Both the position numbers and the translations under genes were made by a program. The notes beneath the pieces are model-generated. The model ran no database searches. It worked only from the letters and a program-made list of their open reading frames with translations, and had not been told where the DNA came from. Below are positions 6,213-64,000 of a DNA stretch of 64,000 bases, in pieces. How positions within the stretch are numbered: the stretch's first letter is position 1; each line of letters begins with the position of its first letter. Origin of the DNA: Knoellia locipacati (GTDB lineage: Bacteria > Actinomycetota > Actinomycetes > Actinomycetales > Dermatophilaceae). The stretch lies in the NCBI RefSeq assembly GCF_007992835.1, contig NZ_BKBA01000004.1:124001-188000 (forward strand), in the 5' to 3' direction.

Positions 6213-6274
6213 GAACCCGACGCGATGCGTGCCATCCGAATCACAAGAAGGCGCTTGTTAGACGGAGCCTTCGC

Positions 6275-7687: not shown

Positions 7688-7696
7688 ACCCCCCAG

Positions 7697-7718: not shown

Positions 7719-7855
7719 TCAAGCTGCCGCGCGGACTGGTTGAAGTGGAGCGGCAGGCTGTTGTTCACGGCGGAGCGTCCTCGTCTAGTGCGCATCCCTC
7801 AGGGTCGACCCGATGCGCTGTCAGGGCACCACCTCGGTCCCCCGCGCCTACTCAA

Positions 7856-40987: not shown

Positions 40988-40994
40988 GGCGGGC

Positions 40995-41786
40995 TCAGGC
41001 CGTGAAGGGTGCGATCTCGACGCCGGCGCCGGTGAGGGCCGCCCGGACCGCGCGCGCCATCTCGACGGCGCCCGGCGAGTCGCCGTGGGTGCAGATCGAC
41101 TCGGCCTGCACCTCGATGTCGGTGCCGTCCACGGCGGTGACCCGCTGCTCGGTCACGAGCCGGACCATCCGGGCTGCGACCTCCGTGGGGTCGTGGAGGA
41201 CGGCACCGGGTGCGCCGCGGGGCACGAGCGTGCCCTCGGGTGTGTAGGCACGGTCGGCGAACGCCTCGACCACCGTGCGCAGACCGGCGGCCTCGGCACG
41301 GCGCAGGAACACCGAGCCGGGCAGGCCGAGGACGGGCAGGTCCGGGTCGATGGCGACGACCGCCCGGACGACGGCCTCCGCCTGCTCCTCGTGGTGCGCG
41401 ATGGCGTTGTAGAGGGCGCCGTGCGGCTTGACGTAGGCGACGTGGCCGCCGGCCACCCGGGCCAGCATCTCGAGGGCGCCGACCTGGTAGATGACGTCGG
41501 CGGTGAGCTCGTCGGGGTCCATGTCGACGAAGCGCCGCCCGAAGCCGACGAGGTCGCGGTAGCCCACCTGGGCGCCGATGACGACGCTCCGCTCGACAGC
41601 GCGGGCGCAGGTCCGCTGGAGGGTGAGGCTGTCGCCGGCGTGGAAGCCGCACGCGACGTTGGCGCTCGTGACGACGTCGAGCATCGCGTCGTCGTCGCCG
41701 AGCCGCCACGTGCCGAGCGACTCGCCGAGGTCCGCATTGAGGTCGACCCGCCTCGTGGTGCTGGCGCCGGTCGTGGCTCCCGTCAT
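40995..41786 (-). CDS. pxpA: 5-oxoprolinase subunit PxpA (LamB/YcsF family)
   Basis: A 263-residue subunit with the YcsF signature: [39 protein letters not shown] near 14-52, then [32 protein letters not shown] and [16 protein letters not shown]. It forms the catalytic core for pyroglutamate ring opening. I start at the ATG at 41786, just before the conserved first strand; the frame upstream stays open through non-coding DNA and the tRNA gene. First gene of the pxpABC operon. Confidence 0.95.
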
Positions 41787-41969: not shown

Positions 41970-42052
41970 GCGCAAGTGGCGGAACGGCAGACGCGCTGCG
42001 TTCAGGTCGCAGTGTCCGAAAGGGCGTGGGGGTTCAAATCCCCCCTTGCGCA
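41970..42052 (+). tRNA. tRNA-Leu (CAG anticodon)
   Basis: An 83-base class II tRNA with a seven-pair acceptor stem (GCGCAAG with CTTGCGC), discriminator A, anticodon loop TTCAGGT on a CTGCG/CGCAG stem giving CAG, a long variable arm and the T arm GGGGGTTCAAATCCCCC. CAG reads CUG, the dominant leucine codon in this GC-rich genome. CCA is not encoded. A terminator hairpin with a T-rich flank follows. No integrase or attachment-site duplication is seen beside it. Confidence 0.95.
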
Positions 42053-42060
42053 CGTGTGGA

Positions 42061-45359: not shown

Positions 45360-45989
45360 ATGGCAGGGAAATCGCGAGTCGCGGCGAGCAGCCTCGCCGA
45401 CAACGCGGACCTGCCACGCCTCGTCACGGTGCTCGACAGGGCGACGTGGTTCACGCCGCTGACCAAGCGCGTGCCACCCGGTCAGACGAGCAAGGACCAG
45501 GTCCGGATCCCGGTCCGCGACGCCCAGCGGCTCCTCGTCGACGTCGTGCGTCTCGTCGCCGACCTGCCGAAGGACACGACGCCGGTCCTCGTCTGGCAGC
45601 AGGGAGCGGCCGAGCTCGAGGTCGACACGTCGGCGACGACCCTCGACTGCGACCACGGCCTGGTCACCGTCGGCGTCCGGGTCGACTGCGACCAGCTGCG
45701 GGAGCCCACCGCGGTGTCGGTGCCGTTCGCGGTGGGCACCGTCGAGGCCCCGACCGGTCTGGTCATGTCGACCTTCACCCGTCTGTCCGGGCCACCGGTC
45801 GTCACCGACGCGTGGTCGGACGCCATCACCGCCTTCGCGTGGGAGTCGCTCGTCGAGCTGACCCGCCGGGTGTGCGCCCAGCTCGGTCGTGACACCCGGG
45901 CGCGGGCCCTCATCCCGGGCGGGATCGCCGCGGAGAAGGGCGTCCTGCTCGTGCAGCCCATGTCACGGACGGCGGCGATGAGGGGGTGA
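45360..45989 (+). CDS. Hypothetical protein, first gene of the giant-protein operon
   Basis: A 209-residue cytosolic protein with no signal peptide or membrane helix. It begins with a polar helix (VAASSLADNADLPRLVTVLDRATWF) and then alternates strands in a beta-sandwich-like way (VLVWQQGAAELEVDTSATTLDCDHGLVTVGVRVDCDQL, VSVPFAVGTVEAPTGLVMSTFTRLSGPPVVTDAW). I recognise no family. The region near residue 75-120 resembles in style the repeated strands of the next, giant protein, so it could be a capping or chaperone-like subunit; this is inference. Six bases separate it from the next gene. Confidence 0.75.
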   Translation: MAGKSRVAASSLADNADLPRLVTVLDRATWFTPLTKRVPPGQTSKDQVRIPVRDAQRLLVDVVRLVADLPKDTTPVLVWQQGAAELEVDTSATTLDCDHGLVTVGVRVDCDQLREPTAVSVPFAVGTVEAPTGLVMSTFTRLSGPPVVTDAWSDAITAFAWESLVELTRRVCAQLGRDTRARALIPGGIAAEKGVLLVQPMSRTAAMRG

Positions 45990-45995
45990 GCAGTC

Positions 45996-48900
45996 ATGGC
46001 GTTCGGTGAGGACGACCTCGGGGGGTTCGGGTCACTCACGCGCGCCATCGGTCTCACCCGCGGGACGAACGGTGACAGCAACCCCGACTGGTTCGGCGAC
46101 CCGGTCGGCGGCGCGGCGCCGCCGCACACCAACGCCAACGGGTTCGCGACCCTCCTCTCCGACGACGACCAGCGGGACGCCCTCATCGAGTTCGTCGACG
46201 AGGTCCTCGGGCCGCCCACCGGTCACGACGACGCGACGTCCCGATGGGTGCCGCTGTTCGCCAACGTGGACCCTGCGGTCACGGTGTATGCCGTCCTCGA
46301 ACCGACCGGGTCCGCCACTGCAGGGACGGTGCGCATCGGGGTGGGGGTCGAGCACCGAACGGGGCTCGCCGGTGACCCGTCCGCCGCGCCCCGCGTGACG
46401 ACCCGGCTCCACGTCCCGATCGCCCACGTCGCCAGAGGCAGCGACACCCGCCCGGCCGACGGGCCGAACCCGAGCTGGCTGCTCCTCGGCCGGGAGGGCG
46501 GGCGGATCGGCGTCGAGGTGGAGGCGACCTTCACCGACGCACCCCCCGTGCCCGGCGAGTCGTTCCTGCGAGGGCTCTCCGCGTCGATCGGGATCCCGAC
46601 CGGCAACGAACCCGTCGAGTTCCGGCTCTCGCTCACCGACCTCCAGCTGCCGGGTGCGGCGTCCCCGACGACGCAGACGTTGACCCTGGACGACCTCGCC
46701 ACCGTCGGGCCGGACCTGATGCAGTTCATCGCCGGTCTGGTGCGCGCGCAGGTCGCCGCCCTCCCGACGAGCAGCCCGGCGCTCGCCAGGGTCTGGGCTC
46801 TCGCGGGCATGCTCGGCCTGCGCGACGGGGTGGCCGACCTGCCGCCGCTGCCGCTCGAGGACATCGTCCAGCGCGGACTGCCGGCCCTCGTCGACTGGCT
46901 CGAGGACATCCTCGAGACCGAGACCCACCTCGACGCGTGGCTCGCCGAGCTCGCCGCCCTCACCGGTGGGACCCCCGACGCAGCCCGCAACGCGGTGACC
47001 CTCACGGTCGGCCCGTGCACCGTCACCGTCGGGCTCGTCGTCGCCGCCGGCACCGGTGGGCACCCGACCCTCACGCCGTGGGTCGAGCTGGCACTCGGCA
47101 CCCGGTCGGGTGCGCAGGCCCTCGCCCACGTCGACCTGCTCGTCGCCGACACCGGGACGGGTGCGGCCACGGCGATCCCGGCGCTGCGGGCCGAGGCCGT
47201 GTTCGGCGCCGACGCCGGTGGCACCCGGCTCTTCGCGGGAGGTGCCGGACAACCGCGACTCGGGTCGGTGCACGTCGGCCTGCGCCTCGACGAGGCGAGG
47301 CGTCCGGCCTTCGTCCTCACGCTCCACGACGTCGACCTCCCCGGACAGCCGCACCGCGACGTGCTCGACCTCTCCAGCCCTGACGCGGCCCTCGACGCGG
47401 CCGACGACGTGCTCGACGGCGTCCTCTCCGACGCCCTCGACGCGCTCGGTGACGCCGGTGGCCTCCTCAAGGTCCTCCTCGGGGTCGACCCACCGGGGAC
47501 GATCGACAGCCCGGACATCCTCGACCTCGTGCGCGACCCGGTCGCGACGATGCGCGACTACTGGCTCGCCATCACCGACGACCAGGACGCGATGACGCAG
47601 GCCCTCGGCGCCGTGCGGCACCTCCTGCTCGGCTCCGCCGGCCCGATCGTCCCCGGGACCGGCCGCGTGGACGACCCGTGGCGGATCGTCCTCGGCGACG
47701 ACGACACCGTGGGGCTCGACCTCTGGCGTGACGGCACGAGGTTGCGGGTCGCCGTCTCCGCGGTGGCCGACCTCGACGTCCTCGACGACCTCCGGGTCGA
47801 CGCGTCCGCCCGGCTCTCGCTACTCAGCCTCGACCTCTCGACCGGTGCGGCGTCCTTCCTCGAGGACGTCGTCGGACGTGCCGGGATCGGCCCCCGCGGC
47901 ACCGACCCGGCGGTCCTGCGGATCGGGGACGACCTCGCCATCGAGGCCCCCCGGCTCGGGGTCGACGTCACGTGGACACCGCGCTCGGGGGTGCGGGTCG
48001 CACCGAGCGGTGAGGGAGTCGCGCTCCTCGTCAGTGGCCTCGGGTCCCGCGCCCCCGACCGGCTGCCCGTCCCGCTGCCCCACCTCGACGAGCACGGCAG
48101 CTGGAGCCCCGACTGGGCACCGGACTGGGCCGCCCTCGAGCGGGTCCTCGGCCACCTGCTCCGCAGGGTCGGCAGCGACGTCCTCGACGCGCTCGCGGAC
48201 CTCGTCGGGTGGGGCGAGGCCGAAGCCCGCTTCGGTGCCCCGCCGACGGTACGCGCGCGGCTGGCCCTCGACGTGCTCCTCACCGACCCCGCGGGGGCGA
48301 TCGAGCAGTGGCTGCTCGACCTCACCCTCGACTGCCGCATGCTCGGCTCGGCGCTGCGCCCGCTCGCCTGGCTCCTCTCCGCCGGGTCCCTGGGCGCACC
48401 TCTCGGCGACGGCCGCCCCGAGCGTCCGTGGCGGCTCCCTGTCGGTGGCGCGGCCGGCGCTCCCGGGCTCGCGGTGTGGACCGTCCCCGGCTGCCGGCCC
48501 GAGACGGCCCGCCGCGGCCCCGCCGAGGCCCTCGACCTGCTCACCGGCACGAGCATCCCGAGCGCGGCGACGACCGCGAGCGTCCTCCTCTCGGTCGCGC
48601 CGAGTGTGCCCGAGCTCGCCGACCTGCTGCACGGGCGCACGGGTCTCGCCACCGGTCTGACCGGACTCGTCACCCGCTGGTCGGGCACCGACGGCCTCGT
48701 CGCCGCACCCGCGACCGTCGAGGTCGACGGGCACGAGGTGCTCGCGGGTGACGCGGGGGTGCGCGTCAGGACTGCGGCCGGCCTCACGTATGCCGGCCTC
48801 GTCGCCTCCGTGCGCAGCGGCGCGGGCCTGCCGGTCGCGCCCGGTCAGGACGGAGTGCCGGCCGCCGTCGTGCACGTCGGCTGCGTCGGCGTCCACGACC

Positions 48901-51900
48901 AGGACTGGCTCGATCTCGTCCCGGCACCCCAACGGATCGACGCCACCGGTCCCAGCCCCGCGGCCGTCCCGGCCACCGGCGACGGGCCGTGGTTCGTTCT
49001 CGTGCCCGATGTCGCGCAGGCCGCCGCCGACCGACCCGACCACGACGGCCTGCTCGCCCAGGCCGAACGGGTGGCTGCCGCGCTCGCCGCGCGGACCGCG
49101 CCGGTGCTGCTCGTCGGGCACGGTGGGGCCGGGGCCGCCACGGTCCGGGCCACGGCCCTCGGAACGGTGGCGACCTCGGTCGACGACGTCGTCACCGTCG
49201 GCACCCCGTGGGGCCCCGTCGCCACGACCGCCTTCGAGACCGACCTCACCGGGGACGCCCTGCGCCTCCTCACCGCCCTCGCGCCGAGCGACACGTCGGC
49301 GCAGGCGGACACCGTCCTCGGCCTCGGGTCCGCCCCCGCGCGACAGGGACTGGACCTCGTGGGCCGCAGCCGCAGCGACCTCACCCGGCTCCCCAGCGCC
49401 CTCGCGGTGACCCGCGACCCGTCGGTGCGGGTGCACGCGTGCTTCGCCTCGCTGGGCTCGGGGGACATCGAGCGCGCCCTCGGGGCCTTCGTCGCGCAGA
49501 CCGTCCAGGCGCGCCTTCGCGCGCTCGAGGCCCTGCCGTCCGGTCCGCCGCAGGAGGTGCACGTCGCGCTCGACCTCCCCGTCGTCGACGGCACGATCGG
49601 CGGGCTGCTCCTCGGAGCCGGCGCCCGGCTCGACCTGCTCACCGTGGCCCGCGCCGCGCCCCGCCTGCGACCGCAGCGCGAGGTGACCGTCAGTCTCACC
49701 GTGGCGGTGACGGACGGCTGGCTCGTCGGTGGACCCGGTGCCGCGCAGCACGACATCGAGTGCCGCTGGGTCGGGTTCGAGGTGCACGTCCCGCTCGACG
49801 GTGGCGCCGGGCGCACCGAGGTGAGCCTGCACGAGGCTCGCGCGCACACGGCATACCGGGAGGTCTGGACGGTCACGGGCGACGGGACCGGGGCGCCGCC
49901 GGAGGTCCGCATCCTGCTCGGCGAGGTCGTGGCGCGGCTGCGCACGGACACGAACCTCGCCCACCTGCTCACCGCGGTCGGACTGCTGCGCGACGGCGGC
50001 CTCGACCCGAGCGGGCTCGACCGGCTGCTCCACGACCCGGCCGCCACGGTGCGCGCCGGTGTGGCCGCCGCACCCCTCGCGGTCGCCACCGCCCTGCGCG
50101 GGATCATCGGCGGCAGCGTCCCGTCCGACGTCGTGCCCACGGCCTTCCGGGTGTCGAGCGGGCCCGCCCACCTCACCGTCGACCTCGCCACCGGCACCGT
50201 GGCGGGCGAGCTCGCCCTCACCGAACCGGTGCCGCTCACCGTCACCCTCGCCGCGGGACCGACCGGCGCCGGGGTCGACGTCAGGGTCGGCGCGGTCGAC
50301 GACACCCTCGGCGGGGTGCAGCTGGTCGGGCACGCGGGGCCCGGCGGCGCGACCCTGCGGGTCGACCTTGCCGCACCCGGGCGACCGGTCGCCCAGGTCG
50401 CGCTCCTGCCCGACCCCAACGCCGACGGTCTCGTGTCGCTCGCCACCGCCCTGCTCCCGGCGCTCCTGCTCAAGGCACTCGGCACCGCGCTGCGGGAGAT
50501 CGTCGAGGACCCCGTGCTCGACGAGTGCCTCGGCGCCGCAGGGCTGCTCGGCTCCGCCGACCCCGAGTCCGGCGTCCGCGACCTCGTCCCGCCGCTGGGC
50601 CTCGTCTGGGACCCCGTCGGGTGGCTGAGGGCGCGCGTGGACCCGCTCGCGGCGACGGTCACCGTCCTCGACGCGCTCGCCCGCGTCGTCACCCCGGACC
50701 GCGGCGCGACACCGGGATGGCCGCTCACCGACGACGTCACCGTGACGTATGCCGTCGTCGCCGGTCGTCTCGAGCTCGCCGCCGCGGTCGCGCTGAGTCC
50801 CACGATCGACGGGCGCCCCGTCGCGACCTCGCTCACCGGTGGCCTGTCGATCGGCACGACCGGTGCCCCCGTCGCCCTGCTCGACGCGAGGGTCACCGTC
50901 GACGGCTGGGGTCTCGACCTCGGTGTCGGCGGCTCCGACCCGGCGCCCGTGCGGCTCGACCTCGTGCGACCCGCCCCCGACACCGCCCTGCGGCTCGTCC
51001 CCGCCGGACCCGGGCTGGGCAGTGCGCTCGCGGACGGCGCGGAGTCGCTCGTCGTCCTCGCGCTCAACGAGCTGGTCGGCCACCGCACCGACGCCGCCTC
51101 TCTGCGACAACAGGTCGCGCAGGCGACGTTCGACGTCTGCGGCGCCCTCGACCTGCTCGTCGCGGCCAAGGTCGACAAGGGGAAGCTGCGGCTCTACACC
51201 CAGCCGCCCGGGCCGGGCGCGGTGCTGCTCAGCCGCCTGCCCGCGCTCGCGTCCACCGGGCTGGCCGCGCTCGCCGAGGCGCTCGACCCGGCGCACACCC
51301 TCGTCGCCAGCACGCTCGACGGCGCCGGGACCGTGCGGCGGTTCGGGCTCGGGACGGCCGTCGCAGGGGTGCGGCCGTTCTCGGTCACGGTCGACGGGTC
51401 GGGCACACCGTCGGTGAGCTTCGGGTGCGACATCGCGCTCGGGACGTGGGGCCGCTTCGCGGTCGAGGAGCTCCGCCTCGACGCGAGCGGCGTGCGGGTC
51501 GCGGTGCGCGGTGGGCCGTTCGTCGTTCCGCTGGGTCCCACGACGCTGCGCCCGGTCGTCGTGGTCCGGGCCGGTGTCGCGGCCGGCGTCGGCACCCGGC
51601 TCCTCGCCGTCGGGCTCGCCGTCGACGAGGTCGAGTCGGTCCAGCTGCGGTGGGCGCTGGACACCAGCCCGCCGGAGCTGTGGGCGATCACGGGCGGCTC
51701 CTCGCCGGGACAGTCGCAGGCGCCCGAGGCCATCGCCGCCGACCTCCTCGGCATCGGGGTCGAGATCGTCTCCGGCCTCGTCGCCCAGCAGCTCGGGAGC
51801 ATCATCACCGACCGTGCGACGGCGCTGCTCAAGGACGTCGTGTTCAGCAACGCCCAGCGGCGGATCGACCCCGGGTTCGTGCACGCGCTCTTCCACCCCG

Positions 51901-54900
51901 AGGAGCTGCTCGACCGGCTGCAGACCCTCGCGTGGAACTGCGCGACGATCACCCCCGGCTTCGAGCTCACCATCGGCGACCAGGTGACGCTCGGCCTCGT
52001 CTCGGAGCCCGAGGGAGACGTCGCCACGAAGAAGATCGGGCTCCGGCTCGACGTCAAGAAGCCGCTCGTGCTCTCGAACAGCGACCCCAAGGTCGAGCTC
52101 GTCTCGCGGGCGGACTGGATCACGGGAGCGCCGCCGTCCGGGCTCCACATCTTCCTGCTCGAGGGGACGAGGACCTCGCTCGACATCGTCCCGCAGGTGC
52201 GGGTCACCGGGGTGGGCCTGCGGTTCTCGGGCGCCGCCCGTCCGATCGTCGACCTCGACGGGTTCTCGATCGACGCCATCGAGGTCAACCTCTACGGCGA
52301 GGCGGCCCGCGAGGGTCTGGGCGGTGGCATCCGGCTCAAGCTCGACGGGCTGTCGGTCGCCCCTGCTGGTGGTGGCGGCGACAACGCCATGGCGAACTCG
52401 CTCATGACCGACGTCGGCTCGTCCAGCGGATCGAGCCGGCCGTCGTTCAGCCCGTCGCTCGCCCTGCAGAAGCACCCCGGCCCCACCGAGAAGCTCGGGG
52501 TCACGCTGCGTGCCGGTGACCCGCCCGGCCCGTGGTGGCTCGTGGTGCAGCGCCAGCTCGGCCCGCTCTACGTCGAGCGCGTCGGCCTCGGGACGACCGA
52601 GAGCGGCGGGACGGTGACGTCGATCAGCCTGCTGTTCACCGGACAGGTCTCGCTCTTCGGGCTCACGGCCGCCGTCGACGGCCTCGGCATCACCTGGAAG
52701 GGCGGCGACGTCGCCAGGATCGAGAACTGGGCGGTCGACCTCAACGGCCTCGCGGTCGCCGCGGACATGGCGGGTGTCTCGATCTCGGGCGGCCTGCTCA
52801 AGCTCACCGAGGGCACGGCGGTGTCCTACGTCGGGATGCTCGTCGGGAGGTTCGCGGCATACGGGCTGTCGGTCTTCGGCGGGTTCACCAACGACCGCGG
52901 CAACGCCTCGTTCTTCATCTTCGGCGGCGTCAACGGGCCGTTCGGCGGGCCACCGATGTTCTTCCTCACCGGGATCGGCGGCGGCCTGGGGATCAACCGC
53001 GGGCTCCGCGTGCCCGACGACCTGTCGAGGTTCGGAGACTTCCCCTTCATCCAGGCCCTCGACCCCGCGGCCACGCCGCCGGCCGACCCGATGGTGCGGC
53101 TGCGCGAGCTCGCGACCTACTTCCCGCACCGGATGGGCGAGTTCTGGTTCGCCGCGGGCATCTCGTTCACGTCGTTCAACCTCGTCGACGGGGTCGCGGT
53201 CATCGCCGTGTCGTTCGGCAACGGGCTCGACGTCAACCTCTTCGGGCTCGCGCGGATGGCGCTGCCGCGTCCGGGCGCGGCGATCGTGTCGATCGAGCTC
53301 GCCCTGCTCGCGCACTTCTCCACGAGCGAGGGCGTCTTCCTCATCAAGGCCCAGCTCACCGACAACTCGTGGCTGCTCTACGAGGACGTCCGGCTCACCG
53401 GCGGGTTCGCCTTCGCGATCTGGTGGAAGGGGCCGCTGGCCGGGCAGTTCGTCCTCACCATGGGCGGCTACCACCCCGACTTCCCGGTGCCGGTGGGCTA
53501 CCCCGAGGTCCCGCGGCTCGGTCTGGTGTGGAAGGTCAGCGACGCCATCGTCATCAAGGGCGGCTCCTACTTCGCCCTCACCTCCGAGGCGCTCATGGCC
53601 GGGCTCGACATCGAGGTCAGCCTCGACTTCGGGTGGGTCTGGGCCAAGGTCTCGTTCGGGGCCCACGGCATCGTCTGGTTCGACCCATTCTGGTTCGAGG
53701 TCATGGCCTACGCCCGGATCTCCGCCGGCATCGACATCGACCTCCCGTGGCCGTTCGGCTCGCTGTCGTTCTCGATCTCGATCGGCGCGAAGATCAAGGT
53801 CTGGGGACCGAAGTTCGCCGGTCGCGCCGAGTTCGAGATCGGGCCCTGCACCGTGCCGGTCGAGTTCGGCGACAAGGCCAAGGTCGAGCCCGAGACCCTC
53901 GACTGGCCGCACTTCGTCACGAAGTACCTCGAGGACGCTGGCAGCGCCGCCAAGGCCCTGTCGGCGATCACCGGCCGCGGCACCCTCCCGACCGCGACGT
54001 CCAGCCCGAAGGGCGCCCCGAGCGCCGACGGCTCGCTCGCCCTGCCCTTCCAGGTCTTCGCGGAGTTCGAGCTCACCCTGACGACGACGATCCCGACGTC
54101 GCACGTCGACGTCGGGCAGGGTTCGGCGCAGGCGGTGGCGCTCACGCTCTCGAGCGGCGCCCCGACCAGCCTGGGCATGGCGCCGATGGGTGCCGCCGGG
54201 CTCACCTCGACCGTCCGGGTCACGCTCGAGCGCAAGAACTTCTCCGGCGCCTGGGAGCCCGACTCCGCGCACCTGAGGAAGCTCGCCTCCCGGGTCGACC
54301 GCGACCACTACCCGCTCGGGGTGTGGGGCTCGCCGAAGTCGCTCGGTTCCGCACCGGCCCTGCCGAGCACCGAGATCGTCACCGCCGGCAACCGCGTCAC
54401 CCTCGTCGCCGGGATCGCCCTCAACCCCGTCGGCCCGCAGATCGAGTACCGCCGCGTCACCGCCGGTCGCCGCCCGCTCCCGCTGCGGGCCACCGGTGCC
54501 ACCCGCGCCGCCTTCCTCAAGACCTCGCGCGACCTCGCCCTGCCGGTGCCCGCGACGTCCGACGACGCGCTGGTGCTCGCGCGGGCCACGCTCTTCCCGC
54601 CCGTGCTCGACGTCATGAAGCCGGGTCAGCACAGCGCCCTCGCCCGGGCGTCCTACCGCCGCGACCGCGTCTCGCCCCCCCGCATCGCCTCGCTCACCGA
54701 CGGTCTCGCGAAGGCCAACGGCGCCGACGGCCAGCGCCTGCCGAGCGAGCCCGTGCCGGTCGAGGTCCGCTCCGCGCGCCGCCCGGTCGTCGCGGCGCTC
54801 ATGACCTCCGGGGTCGGCGCCGCCGTGCGAGCCCCGGTGACGACGGTGGCCGACGGCTCGCTCAAGCGGCGCCCGGCGCCGACGATCGAGTCGGTCAAGG

Positions 54901-56015: not shown

Positions 56016-58192
56016 CCATCAAGGAGGGCCACTTCCAGCTCTACGCCAACCTGGCGCCAGCGCTGCCCGCCGGTGACTACCGGTTCACGACCGAGCAGGA
56101 CCTCGACGCGACCGGGCCCAAGGGACGCCTCGACCCGGGCGCACTGCCCGTCGACGACCTGCGCACCCACGTCCGCGTCACCTCGCCGCGCTTCCAGCTG
56201 CCGCCCGACCAGGTGCTCTCGACCTATCCGCCGGCGAACACCGAGGGCGCCTACGGCAGCCGGCTCCCGCAGGTCGTCATCAAGCGGCGCACCCTGCCGT
56301 GGGAGCGCACCGTCGACCCCGAGAACGAGACCGACATCGACCGGCCCGAGACGCCGTGGCTGGCGCTCGTCGTCATCGCCGAGAACGAGGCCCAGCTCGT
56401 CCTCAACCAGCCCGTCGCCGAGTGCGTCACGCCCGGCCAGGTGCTGCCGGGCACACCGGACGTCGCCCAGGGCAACTACCTCCAGGTGCGGCGGTCCGTC
56501 GTCGACAGGGTGCTGCCGACGCAGAAGGACGTGGCGCTGCTCGCGCACGCCCGCGAGGTCGACATCCACGACACCGAGCTGATGATGGGCGACGACGACG
56601 GCTTCCTCGCGGTCGTCATCGCCAACCGGCTGCCCCTCCCCGGTCGTGACGCCGCCGGCAAGGAGGTCCCCGTGACCTACCTTTGCGCGCTGCTCAACCT
56701 CGAGGGCCAGTTCGACGTCCTGCGCCGCGAGAGCCCACCCCAGCGCACGCACACCGTGTGGCCGGTGCACGAGATGGCCGAGCTCGTCCTCGACGCCGCC
56801 GAGAGCGACCACGTCGTTATGGGCACCCTCAAGGCCGACGACATCTGGGCCGGCAACGTCGCGCACGCGCTCGGGACACAGGCCAACGTCCACGCCGGGC
56901 CGCACGCCGACTCGGTCGACGATCCGCAGGCCGACTCGGTCGACGCGATGCGGCCGATCCGCAGGGCGACCGTGGCCAAGGAGAGCCGGACCGTCACGCC
57001 GCAGCTGCGCGAGGGCTGGGCCACCGGCACCGCCGCGGCGACGGACTCGGTCTACGACGTCATGGCCAAGCCGTTCGGGCGGATCAAGGAGTCGGTCAAG
57101 CACATCCAGCTCGAACCCGAGTACCGCTTCCCCGTGCTGCTCCACTGGTCGTTCACCTCGGTGGGGGACGTGACGTTCGAGGGCCTCATGGACCACCTCG
57201 ACTCGGGGCTGCTCGGCACGCTGCCGCCCGAGGAGACGACGCCGGCCAACCCGCTGCGCACACCGGGACGCACCCCGGGGCTCCTGCCGCTCGAGGTCGT
57301 GGAGACCGGGCACGTCGGCATCGACCAGCGCACGCGGCGGGGCGACACGGTGCGCGCGTGGTACCGCGGGCCGCTCCTGCCGCACCCCGCCGACACCGCC
57401 GCCGACCGACTGCCGCTCGCGCACACCGCCGACCAGCTGCGTGCGGTGGTGCCCGACCGGCGCGAGGACCTCTCTCTCGCCGTGGCCTTCGAGATCGGAC
57501 GGCTGCTCGCGCTCAACGCCCCGGCGACGGTGTCGGCGCTGCTGGCCTGGCGGCAGACGCACTACCAGGCCGCGCGCCGTGAGGCGCTCTGGGCCAAGGC
57601 GCTCGACGGGCTCGAGCTCCAGGGACTCAAGGTGCGCCCGGAGCGGGCGCTCGGGATCCTGCTCGGGCGGGGCCTCGCACGCGGTCTGGCGGCCACCCCG
57701 GCCACCGTGCTCGGTGACCCGCTCGCCCCGGTGACACGCGGCACGACGATGCGGCTGGACTCGCTCGAGGGTGCCGGGCTGGCGAGGACGCTCGCCGGCG
57801 GGTTCGCCATCGACGCGGACCTCTCGGCCCCGCTCGTCGACCTCGCGCGCATCCTGCGCGACGCACCCATGCCCCGCGTCGACCTGCGCGACCTGCCCGG
57901 CCGCGAGGCCAAGGACCTCACTCGCGGGGCCCTGCGGCTCGAGCTCGACCTCGCCACGGGCCTGCTCGCCGTCGACGCCCTCGGCCTGCCAGCGCAGCTC
58001 AACCCGGTCCTCGGCGCCGGTGCCTTCGGCCCGATCGAGCGCGTCGACCACGTGGACCGGGTCGGCGGTGGCATCGGGCGTGGTGGCCCGGGTCGCGCCG
58101 GTCCGGGTCGCGCCGGTCCGGGTCGCGCCGGTCCGGGGCCACGGCGTGCGCCCGACGCCCTCGATGCCGCCCTCGACGAGCTGGAGGACTGA
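56012..58192 (+). CDS. 726-residue hypothetical protein with collagen-like tail
   Basis: An intracellular protein of unknown family. Strand-rich N-terminal part (FQLYANLAPALPAGDYRFT, then FQLPPDQVLSTYPPANTEGAYGSRLPQVVIKRRTLPWER, and TPWLALVVIAENEAQL near 115-130). Centre: FPVLLHWSFTSVGDVTFEGLMDHLDSGLLGTLP near 375-405 and AWYRGPLLPHP near 449. C-terminal half helical (ALNAPATVSALLAWRQTHYQAARREALWAK). The end holds three perfect 15-base repeats (58091-58135) encoding GRAGP, a short collagen-like tail, then an acidic helix. The ATG overlaps the giant gene stop as ATGA behind GGAGGAGG. No signal peptide. Motifs such as WYRGPL suggest a conserved family, but I cannot name one. Confidence 0.8.
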   Translation: MTIKEGHFQLYANLAPALPAGDYRFTTEQDLDATGPKGRLDPGALPVDDLRTHVRVTSPRFQLPPDQVLSTYPPANTEGAYGSRLPQVVIKRRTLPWERTVDPENETDIDRPETPWLALVVIAENEAQLVLNQPVAECVTPGQVLPGTPDVAQGNYLQVRRSVVDRVLPTQKDVALLAHAREVDIHDTELMMGDDDGFLAVVIANRLPLPGRDAAGKEVPVTYLCALLNLEGQFDVLRRESPPQRTHTVWPVHEMAELVLDAAESDHVVMGTLKADDIWAGNVAHALGTQANVHAGPHADSVDDPQADSVDAMRPIRRATVAKESRTVTPQLREGWATGTAAATDSVYDVMAKPFGRIKESVKHIQLEPEYRFPVLLHWSFTSVGDVTFEGLMDHLDSGLLGTLPPEETTPANPLRTPGRTPGLLPLEVVETGHVGIDQRTRRGDTVRAWYRGPLLPHPADTAADRLPLAHTADQLRAVVPDRREDLSLAVAFEIGRLLALNAPATVSALLAWRQTHYQAARREALWAKALDGLELQGLKVRPERALGILLGRGLARGLAATPATVLGDPLAPVTRGTTMRLDSLEGAGLARTLAGGFAIDADLSAPLVDLARILRDAPMPRVDLRDLPGREAKDLTRGALRLELDLATGLLAVDALGLPAQLNPVLGAGAFGPIERVDHVDRVGGGIGRGGPGRAGPGRAGPGRAGPGPRRAPDALDAALDELED

Positions 58193-58195
58193 GCG

Positions 58196-59206
58196 ATGAG
58201 AACCGACGTCCACCAGATGCTGGGTGACCTGCCGAAGGCCTACGCCGCGACGACCGACACCGGTGCGGAGCACCCGCCCCGGGACGACGACGACCCCGGT
58301 GCCATGCCGGCCGAGCTGCGCCGGTGGCTCGTGCGGCTGCGGCTGCTCGAGGGCGTGCCGTTCGCCAACCTCGTCGCCGACACCGAGCTCCTGCCCGAGG
58401 AGTCGATCCGCTGGTTCTACCTCGACCGGCGGTGGACCGACGCGCTCGTTCAGGGCGCCCTCTCGGCCGGCACCGTCAACAGCGACGACCGGGTGCAGCT
58501 CACCGCGCAGTACGACGCCGTCCGCGACGAGCTCGACACCGAGGAGCGCAACTATCGCCGGGCCGCGGGCAGCCCGCGCTTCGAGGGCAAGGTCGAGTCG
58601 GTGAGCGGCTTCCTGCTGCGCAGCAGGGCGGTGTCGGGGTGGCCGGGGCTGCACGTGCGTGCGTTCTCGGTCGACCCCGAGGAGGCCGACGACGCGACCT
58701 ACCCCGAGGTCGACCCGCGCCGGATGCGGCTGCTGCGACTCGAGCGCCTCGCCCCCGCCGTCCTGCTCGTCCTCTTCGACGGCGTCCCCGCGGTCGTGCA
58801 CATCGAGGAGCCGCGCCAGGGCGTGCAGTTCGGCTTCGACGTCGCCGCCACGACGGGCCAGCTCTCGGCGACGTTCCGGGCGCGCAAGCGCGACACCTTC
58901 GAGGACCTGCCCGGCGCCGCCAACGTCATCGACGTGCCCTTCCGCGCCGACGGGGCGCCGGGGGTCGTCGACATCCAGGCGATCTCGACCGAGCTGGCCA
59001 AGCCGTCGCACCCGGGCACCGGGGCGGCCGACGGCCTCGACTCCGCGGAGTACGCCCTCCAGCTCATCCGCTTCCCCTACCGCCAGGTCTTCGGTGACGC
59101 CGAGGGACCGACCGGCAACGTGCCCATCAAGACGGTCTTCCAGCCGCGGATCATGTACGCCGACCACGTCGCGCAGACGTTCGTCGCGATGAAGGACCCG
59201 CGATGA
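58196..59206 (+). CDS. 336-residue hypothetical protein of the giant-protein operon
   Basis: A cytosolic protein of unknown family. After a polar lead comes a helical module (ELRRWLVRLRLLEGVPFANLVADTELLPEESIRWFYLDRRWTDALVQGALSAG, about 40-95) whose LPxESIRxFYxDxxWxDALxxGAxS pattern looks strongly conserved. A helical link (RDELDTEERNYRRAAG) leads to a beta-rich domain (VESVSGFLLRSRAVSGWPGLHVRAFS, LLRLERLAPAVLLVLFDGVPAVVHIEEPRQGVQFGF), ending in ALQLIRFPYRQVFG. It is three bases after the 726-residue gene and overlaps the next by four, so it is made together with them. Possibly an adaptor between the large subunits; inference only. Confidence 0.8.
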   Translation: MRTDVHQMLGDLPKAYAATTDTGAEHPPRDDDDPGAMPAELRRWLVRLRLLEGVPFANLVADTELLPEESIRWFYLDRRWTDALVQGALSAGTVNSDDRVQLTAQYDAVRDELDTEERNYRRAAGSPRFEGKVESVSGFLLRSRAVSGWPGLHVRAFSVDPEEADDATYPEVDPRRMRLLRLERLAPAVLLVLFDGVPAVVHIEEPRQGVQFGFDVAATTGQLSATFRARKRDTFEDLPGAANVIDVPFRADGAPGVVDIQAISTELAKPSHPGTGAADGLDSAEYALQLIRFPYRQVFGDAEGPTGNVPIKTVFQPRIMYADHVAQTFVAMKDPR

Positions 59207-62200
59207 GCCAGATCCCGTTCGAGGTCTCCGGCACGGTGCTCAAGGCCACGGCCTACACCGCCCGCTGGGCAGCCCTCGCCGCCGCCGACACCGACCTCGC
59301 GACCTTCCAGACGTGGGACAAGCGCCTGTCGCGCGACCGGCGGATCCTCGTGCCCGTGGACGTCCAGGCCTTCGTCGCCCCGACCGGCGGGAGCGACCCG
59401 GTCGTCGCCGTGGCCGGACGCACCGGCGACCCGGACCCCTTCGACGCCGGGTCGCCCCTCGCTGCCGGGGTGCACCTGCACTGGGCCATGCCGGACTCGC
59501 TCCTGCGCGGCTCGACCGACCCCGTCACGGGTGACCTCCGGCTGCCGGTGCTGCCCGACCGCTGGGTCGTCGTCCGCCACCTCTACCCCAACGGCTCGCG
59601 CTCCATCCATGTCACCGGCTGGGTCGTCGACGCCGTCACCGGGACGGTCACCTCGCTCCTCGACTACACCGGTGCCGCGTCGTCCGCGCCCGTCGACGAG
59701 ACCTTCACCCCCCTCGACGGGTTCCGTGGTGGGTCACCGCTGTGGACGGCGGCGTATGCCGCGTCGCGCAACCGCTTCGCGCTCCACGACCCGCTCACGG
59801 ACCTGCCGGCGCTGGCCCCGGCGGCGCCCCAGGGCTGGGACGCGGGGCGGGCGGCATACACGGTCGCGGGCTGGTGGAGCGTGCGCGAGGAGGACCCGCT
59901 CGCCTCCGCCACCGGAACGGTCGAGCTCCAGCGGGTGCTGGCCGGTCTCGGCTGGGGTCTGGGCCGAGAGGGTGAGGACTCGTGGGACGAGCCGCCGGAC
60001 CCGCGCGTCAATGCCCTTGTCCGCCGGATGGGGCTCACCTCGGCCAGGACCACCACGGCGACAACCTTCGTCCGCAAGTACGGCTCCGACACCGTCCAGG
60101 ACGAGGACGTCGCACCCACCGCCGGGCTGCCCGTGCGCGCCACCGAGCGGACCTTCGTCGGCATCGGCACGACGCGCTACCACGCGCTCTGCCACGGCAG
60201 CGTCCTCGGCGTGCCCATCGACGGCTCCGTCGACGGCGTCGACGAGCGCCCCGCCCGGGAGGTGCTCGGTGCCTCGGCGGGGCTCGACCTCGACGACCTC
60301 GCCGCCGCCTTCGCCGCGCCGGGCCTGGCCACCGGTCTGGGCCTCAGCGCCGACCAGCGCCTGCTCGCCGAGCGGCTCGTCGCCGCCTTCACCGCAGGGA
60401 CCCTGTCGGAGCTCGGCGCCCAGGACGGGCTCGCCGACCTCGAGGAGCGCGAGCACTCCGACGGCTTTTGGTCGCTCTCGGCGCCACCGGTCGAGGGCAG
60501 CCACGACGACGTCGTGCGCGCCGAGGACTCCTCGCCGTTCGGACCGACCCGGGTGGGACGCAAGGGCCGGGGCGCACAGGCGGCATCGGGTCTCGAGGAG
60601 GTCCGGGTCGAGTGGGCGACCGGGGTGCGGATGTTCGCCGACACGGCCCGGAGGTCCTCGTCGCGGGCCAGCGAGCGCCTCACCGAGAAGGTCCAGCGGC
60701 GCGATCGCGCCGGCACCCCGAGACCGACCGCGTCGGCGGCCGCGCCACCGGCAGGTCCCACCGCGCGCACCGTCCCCAAGGCGCCGCCGCGCCGCTACCG
60801 CCCGGCCCCGCTCATGGTCGCGGTCTCGGGCGTCAAGCCGCACCACCGCCACCACGGTGACGGGCTCCACGAGGGTGGGCTGCTGCGGTGCCGGTACCCC
60901 GGCGAGGCGCTCCCGGCCATCGACGGGGTCGTCGACGGACGGACCGTCGTCCCGACCCTGGGCAGCGGCGCCATCCCACCCGAGGTCACCCGGATCGTGC
61001 GTGAGGCGACCCTGCTCGACGGCTACCACCACGGCTGGCTCGCCGCTGCCGGTGCGACGCCCGGCAAGGACGTCGGCCCGGTCCACACCCGCCTCGTCTC
61101 CGAGCTGGTCCGGATCCACGGCTCGGACGCGGCCTACGACGGCACCGGGGTCGGAGCGCTCACCGAGATCGCGAAGCGCGCCTCCGACGGTGCGCTCAAG
61201 GAGACGTGGCACCACGCCGGAGCCCGCCGCTCGCCGGCCGCGGTCGACAGCGCTGCCGAGCTCGCGGCATACAGCGCCTATCCCGGGACGCCACCGAGCC
61301 CGGTCGCGATCACGACCTGGCGCCAGCCGTGGGTCCCGCTCTTCCTCGAGTGGCGGGTGCGGCTCGACGGCGCGGCCTCGCTGGAGGGCTGGACGCTCGG
61401 GACCACGGACCTCGAGGGCGAGCCCGTCGCCTCACCCCTCACGCGGACGTATGCCGGCCGCTCACCCCTGCACCGCGGCGTCGGCGACGCGCTGTCGAAC
61501 GGGATCCGCGAGTGGCTCGTCGCCGAGCAGCGACGTGACGAGGCCGACGTGACGAGCTCGCAGCTCGAGGACGCCGACGAGGTCGCGCTCGGGGAGCTCG
61601 CGACCTTCCTCGACCCGCTCGACCTCGCGTCCGCCTCGCTCGACGGGCTGCGCGAGCAGCTCCTCGGCATCCGCTACTCGGGCATCGTCGTGCGCGACGA
61701 GGACACGAAGAAGCCGGTCGCGGACGCCCTGCCGGTGCCGGTCTTCGGCGGCACCGCCACCATCGAGGAGCTCCGGCTCGTCGACGCCTTCGGCCGCACG
61801 CTCGACGTGCCCGTCGACGACGTCGTGACGACGACCCAGCTCGACACCGGCACACCGGGCGAGCTGCGCCTCACCCCGCGGATCCAGAACGCCGCCCGGT
61901 GGCTCTTCCGGCTCGTCGACCCGGCGCACCCGCTCGGCAGCGACCCGGCGACGGCGCTCGAGGCGTGGGTGGACCAGGTCCACCCCGAGGTCGCGGTCAA
62001 CCCGGTCTGCGGGTTCCTCCTGCCCGACCACATGGACGAGTCGCTCGAGGTCTTCGACCGCGCCGGAGACCCGATCGGCGAGCTCACCCACGACGCGATC
62101 ACCGACGCGGTGACGTGGGAGCCGGCGCCCGGCCGGCCGATCCCCCCGGACGCGGGGCCGATGACGGCGCTGCCCGCGCACGCGCAGCACGTCGGGCTCT

Positions 62201-63132
62201 TCGCGGACGGCGTGGTCCGCGCCGACATCGCCGCCCGCAACGGGACCACCGACCCCGGCGAGTCGAGCTCCCTCACCGCGCTGCTGCGGGCCGTCGACTC
62301 GACGATGTGGTCGGTCGACGCGTTCTCGTCGCTCGGCACGCCCACCGTCGCCGGGCTCGTCGGCCGACCGATCGCGGTCGTGCGCGCCACCCTGCGGATC
62401 GACGCACCCGACGACGTCGACGAGGTGACGGTCACCGCGGGTGGCGGGGGGACCGACGCGGTCGCGGCGCGGCGCGCGGCATACGCCGAGCTGTCGAGGC
62501 ACCGGTTCCCGGTGCGCATCGGCGAGCTGGGACGCAGCGACGACGCGGTGCTCGGCTTCTTCGTCGACGACGACTACGCACGGTTCCACGTCGTCGACAA
62601 GGTCGTCGCCGCGCTCGCCCTCGACACCGGACGCCACCGCGGGCAGCTCGGGCTGCTCGGCAGCAACGACGTGCCGGACGTCCGGCCGCTCGACCACCCC
62701 TACCTCGAGCTCGAGGACACCGTCGAGGTCCGGCTCGGTGAGACCCGGCGGCTGACGATCCTCATGCTGCCCGGCGGCAAGGCGCACCTCACGTCCGGCA
62801 TCCTGCCGCGCAAGTCGCTCGCGCTCGCCGACGAGTGGGTGAGTCCGGGGCTGCGCCGGCTCGTCCCGTCGCTGCGCACCGGGCCCGTCCTCGTCGACCC
62901 GGCGCAGGTGCGGCTGCCCAAGGTGGCGTCGTTCGGTCCGGACCAGCAGTTCACCCGGCGCACCGGGCCGCTCACCTGGCGCGACGACCCGATCGTCGCG
63001 GCGTCGACCTCGGCCTACCTGCCGCCCATGCCGCACGAGGCCCAGGAGGGCTGGATCAGGGTGGCCCCCGCACCCGCGCCGAAGCCGGCAGCCGGTGGCG
63101 CCCAAGCCACACCGCCAGGGGGTGCCCCGTGA
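59203..63132 (+). CDS. 1,309-residue hypothetical protein of the giant-protein operon
   Basis: A large intracellular protein without signal peptide, membrane helix or recognised domain. Notable segments: GVHLHWAMPDSLLRG (about 88-102) and LPVLPDRWVVVRHLYPNGS (about 113-131), then TRYHALCHGSVLGVPIDG (about 325), a central Arg/Pro/Ala-rich linker (about 455-530), VPLFLEWRVRLDG (about 710), and a C-terminal region with HLTSGILPRKSLALADEWVSPGLRRL (about 1187-1212) and TRRTGPLTWRDDPIVAASTSAYLPP. It closes with a Pro/Ala/Lys tail. The ATG overlaps the previous stop; the end overlaps the next GTG as GTGA. Full open frame with the strong third-position GC of its neighbours. Function unknown. Confidence 0.82.
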   Translation: MSQIPFEVSGTVLKATAYTARWAALAAADTDLATFQTWDKRLSRDRRILVPVDVQAFVAPTGGSDPVVAVAGRTGDPDPFDAGSPLAAGVHLHWAMPDSLLRGSTDPVTGDLRLPVLPDRWVVVRHLYPNGSRSIHVTGWVVDAVTGTVTSLLDYTGAASSAPVDETFTPLDGFRGGSPLWTAAYAASRNRFALHDPLTDLPALAPAAPQGWDAGRAAYTVAGWWSVREEDPLASATGTVELQRVLAGLGWGLGREGEDSWDEPPDPRVNALVRRMGLTSARTTTATTFVRKYGSDTVQDEDVAPTAGLPVRATERTFVGIGTTRYHALCHGSVLGVPIDGSVDGVDERPAREVLGASAGLDLDDLAAAFAAPGLATGLGLSADQRLLAERLVAAFTAGTLSELGAQDGLADLEEREHSDGFWSLSAPPVEGSHDDVVRAEDSSPFGPTRVGRKGRGAQAASGLEEVRVEWATGVRMFADTARRSSSRASERLTEKVQRRDRAGTPRPTASAAAPPAGPTARTVPKAPPRRYRPAPLMVAVSGVKPHHRHHGDGLHEGGLLRCRYPGEALPAIDGVVDGRTVVPTLGSGAIPPEVTRIVREATLLDGYHHGWLAAAGATPGKDVGPVHTRLVSELVRIHGSDAAYDGTGVGALTEIAKRASDGALKETWHHAGARRSPAAVDSAAELAAYSAYPGTPPSPVAITTWRQPWVPLFLEWRVRLDGAASLEGWTLGTTDLEGEPVASPLTRTYAGRSPLHRGVGDALSNGIREWLVAEQRRDEADVTSSQLEDADEVALGELATFLDPLDLASASLDGLREQLLGIRYSGIVVRDEDTKKPVADALPVPVFGGTATIEELRLVDAFGRTLDVPVDDVVTTTQLDTGTPGELRLTPRIQNAARWLFRLVDPAHPLGSDPATALEAWVDQVHPEVAVNPVCGFLLPDHMDESLEVFDRAGDPIGELTHDAITDAVTWEPAPGRPIPPDAGPMTALPAHAQHVGLFADGVVRADIAARNGTTDPGESSSLTALLRAVDSTMWSVDAFSSLGTPTVAGLVGRPIAVVRATLRIDAPDDVDEVTVTAGGGGTDAVAARRAAYAELSRHRFPVRIGELGRSDDAVLGFFVDDDYARFHVVDKVVAALALDTGRHRGQLGLLGSNDVPDVRPLDHPYLELEDTVEVRLGETRRLTILMLPGGKAHLTSGILPRKSLALADEWVSPGLRRLVPSLRTGPVLVDPAQVRLPKVASFGPDQQFTRRTGPLTWRDDPIVAASTSAYLPPMPHEAQEGWIRVAPAPAPKPAAGGAQATPPGGAP

Positions 63133-64000
63133 GCGACGTCGACGACGGCCGTCGCCGGGCCCGCGCTGCGCGCAAGGCGGTGCGCCGCGGCAACGCTCGC
63201 AGGCGACAGGCCTGGCGCGACGAGATGCGCGGCGAGCCGGACACCGCCGCCCTCGCCGAGGCGCTCCAGCGGCTGGCCGACGCCGAGGGCGAGGCCGCGG
63301 ACGACGACGCCGCGCGCGATGCCCGCCGTGGTGGGCCGCTCGCCGCGCCGTCGGCCACGGCCGCCGGACGCTGGGTGCCGGTCGGTCCCTCCGTCGTGCG
63401 GCGCGGGCAGGCGACCGGACGGCCGCGGGTCACCGGCCGGATCAACGACCTCGCCGTCTCCCCGAACGGCCTGCGCGCGTATGCCGCGTCCGGCAACGGA
63501 GGTCTCTGGTACACCGAGGACGCCGGCGCGACGTGGGCCCCCGTGGGTGGCTGGGTGACGCGGGGCCGGGTGGCGGGCGGCCGCACCAACGCGCTCACCG
63601 TCGGCTGTGTGGAGGTGGTCTTCGGCGCCGACGCCGAGCACGACCTCGTCCTCGTCGGCACGGGCGAGGTGTCCGCGAGTCCCTCGCACTCGGGTGCGGC
63701 GCAGGGTGGGATCGGGGTGCTGTCCGCCGTCGGGCCGGTGACGCTGGCGGTCACCCACGACGACCCGTGGGAGCCCGACGTCAACGCGCTCGCGACCTTC
63801 GAGGGCGCGCGGACCTATCGGATCGCCCACGACCCCAACACCGACGTCGGCGCCACGAGCGGGGTGCGGGCCCACCGCGTCATCGCCGCCAGCTCGGCGG
63901 GCCTGTTCACCGGGCTCCGTCAGGCGGTGCCGGCGGCGGGCGGGTTCCCGGCCCGCGGCACCTACCGGTGGACCCCCTGCGCGCTCGCCCACGTCGGCGG
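63129..64000 (+). CDS. BNR/beta-propeller-like protein, 3' end outside window
   Basis: The first 290 residues of a protein that runs off the right edge. A basic N-terminal helix (RRRARAARKAVRRGNARRRQAWRDEM) and an acidic stretch precede a propeller-like domain. One clear blade reads GRINDLAVSPNGLRAYAASGNGGLWYTEDAGATWAPVGGW near 97-140, with the BNR/Asp-box pattern (S/T-x-D-x-G-x-T-W). Further strands (HDLVLVGTGEVSAS, RVIAASSAGLFTGL) suggest more blades. Usually such repeats are extracellular sialidase- or YCF48-like, but no signal peptide exists here. The GTG start overlaps the 1,309-residue gene by four bases; an AGGGGG lies upstream. Probably a structural or substrate-reading member of the same complex. 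Confidence 0.78.
   Translation, partial: MSDVDDGRRRARAARKAVRRGNARRRQAWRDEMRGEPDTAALAEALQRLADAEGEAADDDAARDARRGGPLAAPSATAAGRWVPVGPSVVRRGQATGRPRVTGRINDLAVSPNGLRAYAASGNGGLWYTEDAGATWAPVGGWVTRGRVAGGRTNALTVGCVEVVFGADAEHDLVLVGTGEVSASPSHSGAAQGGIGVLSAVGPVTLAVTHDDPWEPDVNALATFEGARTYRIAHDPNTDVGATSGVRAHRVIAASSAGLFTGLRQAVPAAGGFPARGTYRWTPCALAHVG

What the first reader, a model, noticed from the sequence alone, without database searches (positions are those of the whole stretch)
45360..64000. Six-gene operon encoding an uncharacterised giant intracellular protein assembly
Seen: at least 18.6 kb of one strand with gene spacings of +6, -4, +3, -4 and -4 bases, encoding proteins of 209, 3,339, 726, 336, 1,309 and at least 290 residues, none with a signal peptide or membrane helix. 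Known: DUF6603 (in the giant) and BNR repeats (in the last) are structural-looking families; the other proteins match nothing I know. Inference: a stoichiometric, beta-rich cytosolic complex, perhaps a particle, scaffold or conflict system. The investment (over 6,000 residues) implies a selected function.
Basis: partly seen in the sequence, partly recalled or inferred. Interest (0 to 1): 0.9.

Follow-up and report, generated by a model that had tools for sequence, protein, structure and literature searches.

The report
Widespread unknown giant-protein operon (DUF6603)
A bacterium carries an operon for a 3,339-residue protein of unknown function and five partners; the same core of genes, in nearly the same order, turns up in many unrelated bacteria, so it looks like an undescribed, horizontally spread molecular machine.

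Summary
In 90 DUF6603 loci (one genome twice), B follows A in 78 of 79 testable loci, C in 67 of 72, D in 57 of 66. In 296 sampled genomes of the phylum, D (4 genomes) and B/C (5) occur only with A. B and C are fused in 28 proteins, so a complex is likely. A consists of tandem ~200-240-residue repeats plus DUF6603, predicted as a long two-faced beta-sheet, laid out like lipid-bridge grooves but without homology detected. The gene before A is exchangeable (g1 here; immune-type metallo-beta-lactamase-fold or endonuclease/phosphatase-like proteins elsewhere), and so is the gene after D (propeller, tail-collar or other binding proteins). Best reading: a cytosol-assembled, modular conflict or delivery particle (0.35). 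That it is a conserved system unlike any I could identify is much safer.

The parts
45360..45989 (+). g1: 209-residue protein of a family found here only before giant A proteins
   Evidence: Family in 27 of 90 loci; gap to A -4 to +27 bases. 24 of 29 complete giant-A loci (3,000 residues or more) carry it, 0 of 48 smaller ones. No Pfam match at E<=1, best PDB profile match E 0.67.
45996..56015 (+). A: 3,339-residue DUF6603 giant
   Evidence: Pfam DUF6603 E 5.9e-117; homologues in the 90 loci; amphipathic-beta excess over shuffles.
46593..51545 (+). A, residues ~200-1850: tandem repeats of ~200-240 residues, each a cluster of amphipathic strands plus a strand-poor segment
   Evidence: Profile-profile self-comparison: 13 of 378 non-overlapping window pairs with probability >90, best 98.2; strand clusters 109-256, 330-434, 561-698, 1185-1280, 1388-1463, 1574-1669, 1792-1879.
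48873..49595 (+). A, residues ~960-1200: alpha/beta-hydrolase-looking insert between repeats, nucleophile motif degenerate in this copy
   Evidence: GHGGAG at residue 1041 here; GHSxxG or AHSxxG in several of 30 aligned giants. The naming is from recall; no Pfam match.
51543..54485 (+). A, residues 1850-2830: region modelled with AlphaFold2 (mostly long beta-strands)
   Evidence: pLDDT 86.2, pTM 0.67, 70 sequences; Foldseek and VIA-align results.
52545..53939 (+). DUF6603 domain
   Evidence: within the most conserved part of 30 aligned giants.
56012..58192 (+). B: 726 residues; fused to C in 28 proteins of relatives; possibly a CopC-like Ig-type domain (weak)
58196..59206 (+). C: 336 residues, equivalent to the C-terminal part of fused B-C proteins
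   Evidence: After A in 67 of 72 testable loci; matches positions 419-686 of the 690-position B-C profile, B matches 7-391.
59203..63132 (+). D: 1,309 residues, motif GVHLHWA[L/M]PD near the N-terminus
   Evidence: Downstream of A in 57 of 66 testable loci; of the other nine, five have D upstream and four are the second locus type without it. In 296 phylum genomes found only with A.
63129..64000 (+). E: first 290 of 1,259 residues, probable beta-propeller protein (weak); ends at G000:C4:190908
   Evidence: Family in 20 loci, window included, cut by the 10-kb flanks; found in 8 of 15 relatives' genomes searched, nearly full length in Janibacter, Pedococcus, Marihabitans, Marinobacter and a Gemmatimonadaceae MAG, in part in two roseobacters and a Pseudomonadota MAG.

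Best explanation
The operon encodes one large complex, assembled in the cytosol and spread between bacteria as a unit. A is its scaffold: a giant protein whose repeats and DUF6603 domain form a long beta-sheet with one greasy and one polar face, wrapping or presenting something hydrophobic (lipid, membrane or another greasy surface). B, C and D are the fixed partners that build on A. The slot before A holds an exchangeable module, an enzyme-like protein in many relatives (immune-type nuclease fold, endonuclease/phosphatase fold, peptidase) and g1 here. The slot after D holds an exchangeable recognition module: a probable beta-propeller (E here) or phage-tail-collar, fibre or lectin-like protein elsewhere. 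I think it most likely works as a modular conflict or delivery particle: recognition module binds a target, hydrophobic scaffold engages or crosses its membrane, enzyme acts. Shown: gene set, order, co-occurrence, fusions, differing flanks, a gene tree that mixes phyla. Predicted only: the beta-sheet and its faces. Inferred: complex, particle, delivery, and release without a signal peptide (for example by lysis).
For: A in ten phyla by the tree's labels, followed by B in nine of them (the one Myxococcota locus, L083, ends too soon). No orphans in 296 genomes (hypergeometric p 1.3e-5 for D and 2.3e-7 for B/C with the own genome left out). Median gaps A-B 8.5, B-C -4, C-D 3.5, D-E -1 bases, and 28 B-C fusions. 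Repeats and amphipathic strands in A, no amphipathic-strand excess in B-C, D, E or g1. Gene before A on the same strand within 300 bases in 68 of 77 loci, g1 in 26 of these. Metallo-beta-lactamase-fold (MBL) proteins at -1 or -2 in 12 loci, THxDxDH motif kept in 12 of 12; all 6 of those 12 that I scanned one by one match PADLOC LmuA, RTasMBL and Avs1a models. Endonuclease/phosphatase-like proteins in 4. Phage tail collar, Kelch, WD40, LamG and FISUMP domains in genes near A or after D. The tree mixes phyla at well-supported nodes.
Against: No export signal was seen, and I saw no secretion, lysis or tail gene linked consistently. Recognition domains of this kind are usually extracellular (recalled), which sits badly with signal-less proteins unless cells lyse. 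The flanking slots in this window (g1, E) hold no recognised enzyme or receptor-binder. The sheet's closest solved structures match only loosely (TM normalised by the model at most 0.18 in the 50 rows shown). The trypsin partner that goes with such nucleases in immune systems was not seen (motif GDSGGP in none of the A, B, C or D proteins). One locus with enough sequence (L090, Sporomusa) has no recognisable B or C after A.
Confidence: 0.35

Rival explanations
1. Intracellular lipid handling: A is a bacterial cytosolic hydrophobic groove or belt that carries lipid or coats a lipid body or membrane, and B-E are adaptors.
For: Repeat layout (5-9 amphipathic strands, then a strand-poor segment, per ~200-240 residues) resembles the repeating-beta-groove unit as described in PMC7613979 (passages). 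The hydrophobic strand face is rich in L/V/A/I/F/G and almost free of charge over 70 homologues. Top Foldseek hit is ApoB100 (E 1.3e-4, probability 0.44), and LPD-3 appears at 6.3e-3 (probability 0.14). No signal peptide seen. Giants carry a hydrolase-like insert.
Against: No match to a Pfam family other than DUF6603 at E<=1. The hits are loose, and porins and ushers score as well. It does not explain exchangeable nuclease-like and tail-fibre-like neighbours or patchy transfer.
Confidence: 0.22
2. Intracellular immunity: the complex senses phage or other invaders and fires the enzyme encoded before A.
For: MBL-fold proteins before A in 12 loci match models of Lamassu, DRT and Avs1 proteins; in a set of 84 neighbours, 8 match LmuA and a few others match single defence models. 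Such nucleases sit upstream in several antiphage systems (PMC12799240, passages). Patchy distribution: 3 of 9 genomes in the genus.
Against: None of the six window proteins matches PADLOC at E<=1. Pfam shows no NTPase or known sensor in the window's proteins. A binding-protein slot after D is not typical of immunity (recalled). Most loci lack the nuclease-like gene (found in 12 of 90).
Confidence: 0.18
3. Surface or matrix structure: an adhesin, sheath or S-layer-like assembly exported by an unknown route.
For: Lectin-, collar-, propeller- and Ig-like domains. S-layer-associated proteins among the Foldseek hits. The g1 of one Acidobacteria MAG begins with a hydrophobic stretch (L067).
Against: No signal peptide seen in the window proteins, and only 5 of 359 family members pass the hydropathy threshold in their first 40 residues. 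Found in both monoderms and diderms (recalled biology of the hosts).
Confidence: 0.12
4. A relic or variant of a phage tail or contractile injection system.
For: Neighbours in relatives include tail-collar and tail-fibre families.
Against: The DUF6603 domain, a B-C protein and a D protein have no match in 50,697 phage records; no relative of B or of DUF6603 confirmed in viral contigs; no PHROG match at E<=1 for the window proteins, the sixth only in part; the B-C fold has no match in predicted viral structures at E<=0.001.
Confidence: 0.05

Closest known systems
Pfam PF20248 (DUF6603), family of unknown function
   Same: A contains the domain (E 5.9e-117).
   Different: Pfam describes one domain; here it is the anchor of a conserved multi-gene system. 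No paper in the searched library holds the word DUF6603.
Repeating-beta-groove / bridge-like lipid-transfer proteins (VPS13, ATG2; bacterial AsmA/TamB-like)
   Same: Giant size, tandem units of a strand cluster plus a strand-poor segment, strands with one hydrophobic and one hydrophilic face.
   Different: No sequence match at HMMER sensitivity; longer strand runs in DUF6603; no chorein domain or membrane anchor found; embedded in an operon with B, C and D.
ApoB100 beta-belts
   Same: Top Foldseek hit of the modelled part of A (E 1.3e-4).
   Different: TM-score 0.09 and rmsd above 50 A: a local resemblance only.
Antiphage systems with upstream metallo-beta-lactamase nucleases (Lamassu, Avs1, Hachiman, DRT)
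   Same: In 12 relatives a protein of this fold lies upstream of A.
   Different: The window's core matches no PADLOC model; no trypsin-type motif; the window copy has no such enzyme before A.
Tc toxin complexes, extracellular contractile injection systems, umbrella toxins (first two recalled; the last from the start of an abstract in a listing, PMC13274773)
   Same: Logic only: fixed core, exchangeable enzyme, exchangeable binding module.
   Different: No sequence comparison with these was made beyond the Pfam, PHROG and PADLOC scans, which found no overlap with the core.

Membership tests
DUF6603 (Pfam PF20248) | Match above the curated cut-off (27 bits) | tested here: met
   391.7 bits.
Repeating-beta-groove / bridge-like lipid transfer | Tandem units of 5 beta-strands plus a helix/loop element, >=150 residues each | tested here: inconclusive
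   Tandem ~200-240-residue repeats with clusters of 5-9 amphipathic strand-like runs, but the N-terminal repeats were not modelled and DUF6603 has longer strand runs.
Repeating-beta-groove / bridge-like lipid transfer | Hydrophobic concave and hydrophilic convex face | tested here: inconclusive
   Face difference of 1.5 or more in 28 of 36 strands of 7+ residues; which face is concave was not measured.
Repeating-beta-groove / bridge-like lipid transfer | Sequence homology to chorein, AsmA or TamB families | tested here: inconclusive
   Pfam scan at E<=1 gives DUF6603 only, but this is single-sequence HMMER; no profile-profile comparison with those families was run.
Repeating-beta-groove / bridge-like lipid transfer | Binds and moves lipids | not testable with these tools
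   Needs purified protein.
Known antiphage systems (PADLOC 2023) | Core proteins match a system's models | tested here: not met
   0 families for six of six proteins at E<=1.
Antiphage systems with MBL nucleases | Upstream MBL-fold nuclease-like gene | tested here: inconclusive
   Present in 12 relatives with motif intact, not before A in the window.
Antiphage systems with MBL nucleases | Trypsin-like protease partner | tested here: inconclusive
   GDSGGP motif in 0 of 89 A, 78 B, 71 C and 74 D proteins; looser GxSGG pattern in 0 called proteins of the 12 MBL loci. A motif search only.
Tailed phage / contractile injection system | Tail, sheath, tube or baseplate homologues in the core | tested here: not met
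   No PHROG, phage-record or viral-contig relative found for the proteins given.
Outer-membrane beta-barrel | Closed barrel and signal peptide in a diderm | tested here: inconclusive

The most novel reading that the evidence does not exclude
A new class of bacterial nanomachine: a cytosol-assembled, horizontally spread particle in which a giant bridge-like hydrophobic beta-groove protein, with three dedicated partners, couples exchangeable enzymes (including immune-type nucleases) to exchangeable recognition modules, so that cargo or lipid is delivered into or extracted from a target membrane.
Probability: 0.3. Interest if true: 0.95.

Novelty: categorically new. Interest (0 to 1): 0.8.

Why it matters
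A system of more than 7,000 residues, with its giant protein in ten bacterial phyla, has no assigned function, and its domain's name occurs in no paper of the library searched. If A is a cytosolic hydrophobic groove it would extend the lipid-bridge principle to bacterial cytosol, including monoderms. If the whole is a conflict particle it would be a new kind beside tailocins, toxin complexes and immune systems. The exchangeable flanking genes make the function testable by comparing relatives.

Tried and rejected

Limits of the counts. Relatives were gathered through A with motifs of the window's type (137 candidate stretches, 82 confirmed, best 80 kept), so the second locus type is under-sampled. 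G261 and L064 are the same genome and are both in the counts; G204 and L107 are nearly identical. Loci with A too near a contig end were left out of each synteny count (11, 18 and 24 of 90 for B, C and D). The profiles used were trained on these loci. G051 was dropped because the second gene caller missed its A; that caller also missed B-C in L073, which one search found by six-frame search. The 84 neighbours were chosen by me from 188. The tree is a quick one (SH-aLRT only), phyla follow record titles (many are MAGs), and long branches make several placements unsure. Amphipathic excess was not found in A's first 200 residues (0.21 against a shuffled mean of 0.17, maximum 0.32) and is slight in its C-terminal 690 (0.12 against 0.07).
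Full report
OBSERVATION. The six genes are there as described, with gaps +6, -4, +3, -4, -4. The contig continues beyond the window. The sixth gene, E, is 1,259 residues from its GTG, and a 415-residue gene lies 588 bases after it on the same strand. The 415-residue gene is conserved near E in Janibacter HTCC2649, Pedococcus, Marihabitans and Marinobacter, on the opposite strand in Pedococcus and Marihabitans. The genome is Janibacter-like: its nearest DUF6603 relative is Janibacter sp. HTCC2649 at 91%.

IS IT A REAL SYSTEM? DUF6603 occurs in 9 of 296 genomes sampled from the phylum (own included) and in 0 of 14 named controls. I collected loci through A alone: eight further genomes of that sample, one Embleya plasmid, and 80 named genome contigs. 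With the window that makes 90 loci, of which G261 and L064 are one genome. The tree's rows carry ten phylum labels. Six-frame profile searches then asked what lies downstream. B was found within 3 kb on the same strand in 78 of 79 loci that have more than 1.5 kb of sequence (the exception is L090), C in 67 of 72 (exceptions: four loci of a second type, and L090), D in 57 of 66. Of the nine without D downstream, four are the second locus type and five have D upstream. The profiles were trained on these same loci, but the neighbours were not used to choose the loci. Of the ten phyla, nine show B after A; the single Myxococcota locus (L083) ends too soon.

NO ORPHANS. Searching the same 296 genomes for D found 4 genomes, and for B/C 5, every one also carrying A. 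The other DUF6603 genomes of the sample are of the second type, without D. Leaving the own genome out, the chance of D and B/C falling only in A genomes is 1.3e-5 and 2.3e-7.

PHYSICAL COUPLING. Over the loci the median gaps are A-B 8.5, B-C -4, C-D 3.5, D-E -1 and g1-A -4 bases. B and C are one protein in 28 cases. Overlapping genes plus fusion argue for a complex (inference).

TRANSFER. On the DUF6603 tree a clade of 15 rows with SH-aLRT 100 joins the window and other Intrasporangiaceae with an Ilumatobacteraceae MAG, two Gemmatimonadaceae and Marinobacter/Ketobacter (quick tree, no bootstrap). The genes beyond the operon mostly differ in the relatives whose flanks I read. Only 3 of 9 genomes of the genus have DUF6603. 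Thirteen plasmid records hold a DUF6603 match, three of them haloarchaeal; in the four plasmids whose annotation I read, the proteins next to it are 'hypothetical'.

WHAT A LOOKS LIKE. Complete A proteins range from 673 residues (one 201-residue fragment in L115 aside) to 3,622; 29 of 77 are 3,000 or longer. Comparing windows of 30 aligned giants with each other gives 13 of 378 non-overlapping pairs above 90% probability: tandem ~200-240-residue repeats over residues ~200-1850. Column-averaged hydropathy shows excess two-residue periodicity in those repeats (0.26-0.29 of windows; shuffled means 0.11), in residues 1850-2160 (0.31 against 0.14) and in DUF6603 (0.49 against 0.24), but no excess in D, B-C, E or g1, nor in A's first 200 residues or hydrolase-like insert. 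AlphaFold2 of residues 1850-2830 is confident (pLDDT 86.2, pTM 0.67) and mostly long strands joined by short turns, with helical breaks; I take it for an antiparallel meander. In 28 of 36 strands one face is clearly greasier. From model residue 320 on, the greasy face of those strands is L, V, A, I, F and G in 84% of cells over 70 homologues, with W 0.7%, Y 3.1% and under 3% charged. A lipid-facing barrel would be expected to show aromatic girdles (recalled).

EXCHANGEABLE FLANKS. Of 77 loci with upstream sequence, 68 have a same-strand gene within 300 bases before A; it is g1 in 26. In 12 loci a metallo-beta-lactamase-fold protein with intact THxDxDH lies at -1 or -2; the six scanned singly all match PADLOC LmuA, RTasMBL and Avs1a models. 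In several immune systems such proteins are nucleases encoded upstream (PMC12799240, passages). Four are endonuclease/exonuclease/phosphatase-like (L081 just over Pfam's cut-off; L068 and L084 below it; L082 by similarity to L081). One second-type locus (G108) has an M64 peptidase before A and another (G051) a PhoD-like protein below the cut-off. Among 84 of 188 neighbours scanned as a set, the commonest families were metallo-beta-lactamase (5), phage tail collar (4) and Kelch (4). Individually scanned genes after D include Kelch, tail collar, WD40, LamG and FISUMP proteins.

MECHANISM. Shown: a conserved, operonic core with differing ends and a tree that mixes phyla. Predicted: A is a repeat-built two-faced sheet. 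Inferred: complex, hydrophobic scaffold, recognition module, enzyme cargo. I commit to a cytosol-assembled conflict or delivery particle at 0.35, with lipid handling (0.22) and intracellular immunity (0.18) as serious rivals. The missing signal peptide counts against delivery unless cells lyse, and the tail-fibre-like neighbours count against the other two.

NOVELTY. DUF6603 as a domain is catalogued; I saw no description of the system in what I could search. I rate it categorically new as a system, with function open.

Noticed in passing
window 1-7795: Lower-GC stretch (0.64-0.65 against 0.69-0.77 later) with a helicase-like 1,209-residue frame, a 364-residue nuclease-looking protein and a cytosine-methyltransferase-looking protein; by recall it resembles a DISARM-type defence locus.
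   Followed up: partly
G000:C4, window-equivalent 88408-99227 (L010:7408-18227): Five genes of 233 to 1,089 residues on one strand that look by recall like a restriction/helicase island, about 21 kb downstream of the operon.
   Followed up: no
A residues ~960-1200 (window 48873-49595): Alpha/beta-hydrolase-like insert whose nucleophile motif is kept in some giants and degenerate in others, including this one.
   Followed up: partly
L026-L027 (G051), L025 (G108), L028-L029 (G193), L030-L031 (G288): A second DUF6603 locus type: a B-like protein, then a ~1,550-2,100-residue 'LPIRLETR' protein and a 'RQWQFGEF' protein or fused part; the two G051 proteins have no Pfam family.
   Followed up: partly
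L084:6243-7271 and L072:4345-6372: Proteins encoded just before A in a Saprospiraceae MAG and an Aquimarina have lysine/arginine-rich stretches towards their C-termini that look like nuclear-localisation signals; no tool tested this (sequences).
   Followed up: no
L157 (Paenibacillus polymyxa plasmid NZ_CP133769.1): A DUF6603 gene lies about 8-9 kb from a 'phage baseplate assembly protein V' and a GH-E family nuclease.
   Followed up: no
L113:7473-8642: Second gene before A in Methylovulum is a beta-looking, amphipathic-looking 389-residue protein with no Pfam family.
   Followed up: no
window 39477-41786: Three genes on - that look by recall like a 5-oxoprolinase (KipI/PxpA-type) set, next to tRNA-Leu at 41970-42053.
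   Followed up: no
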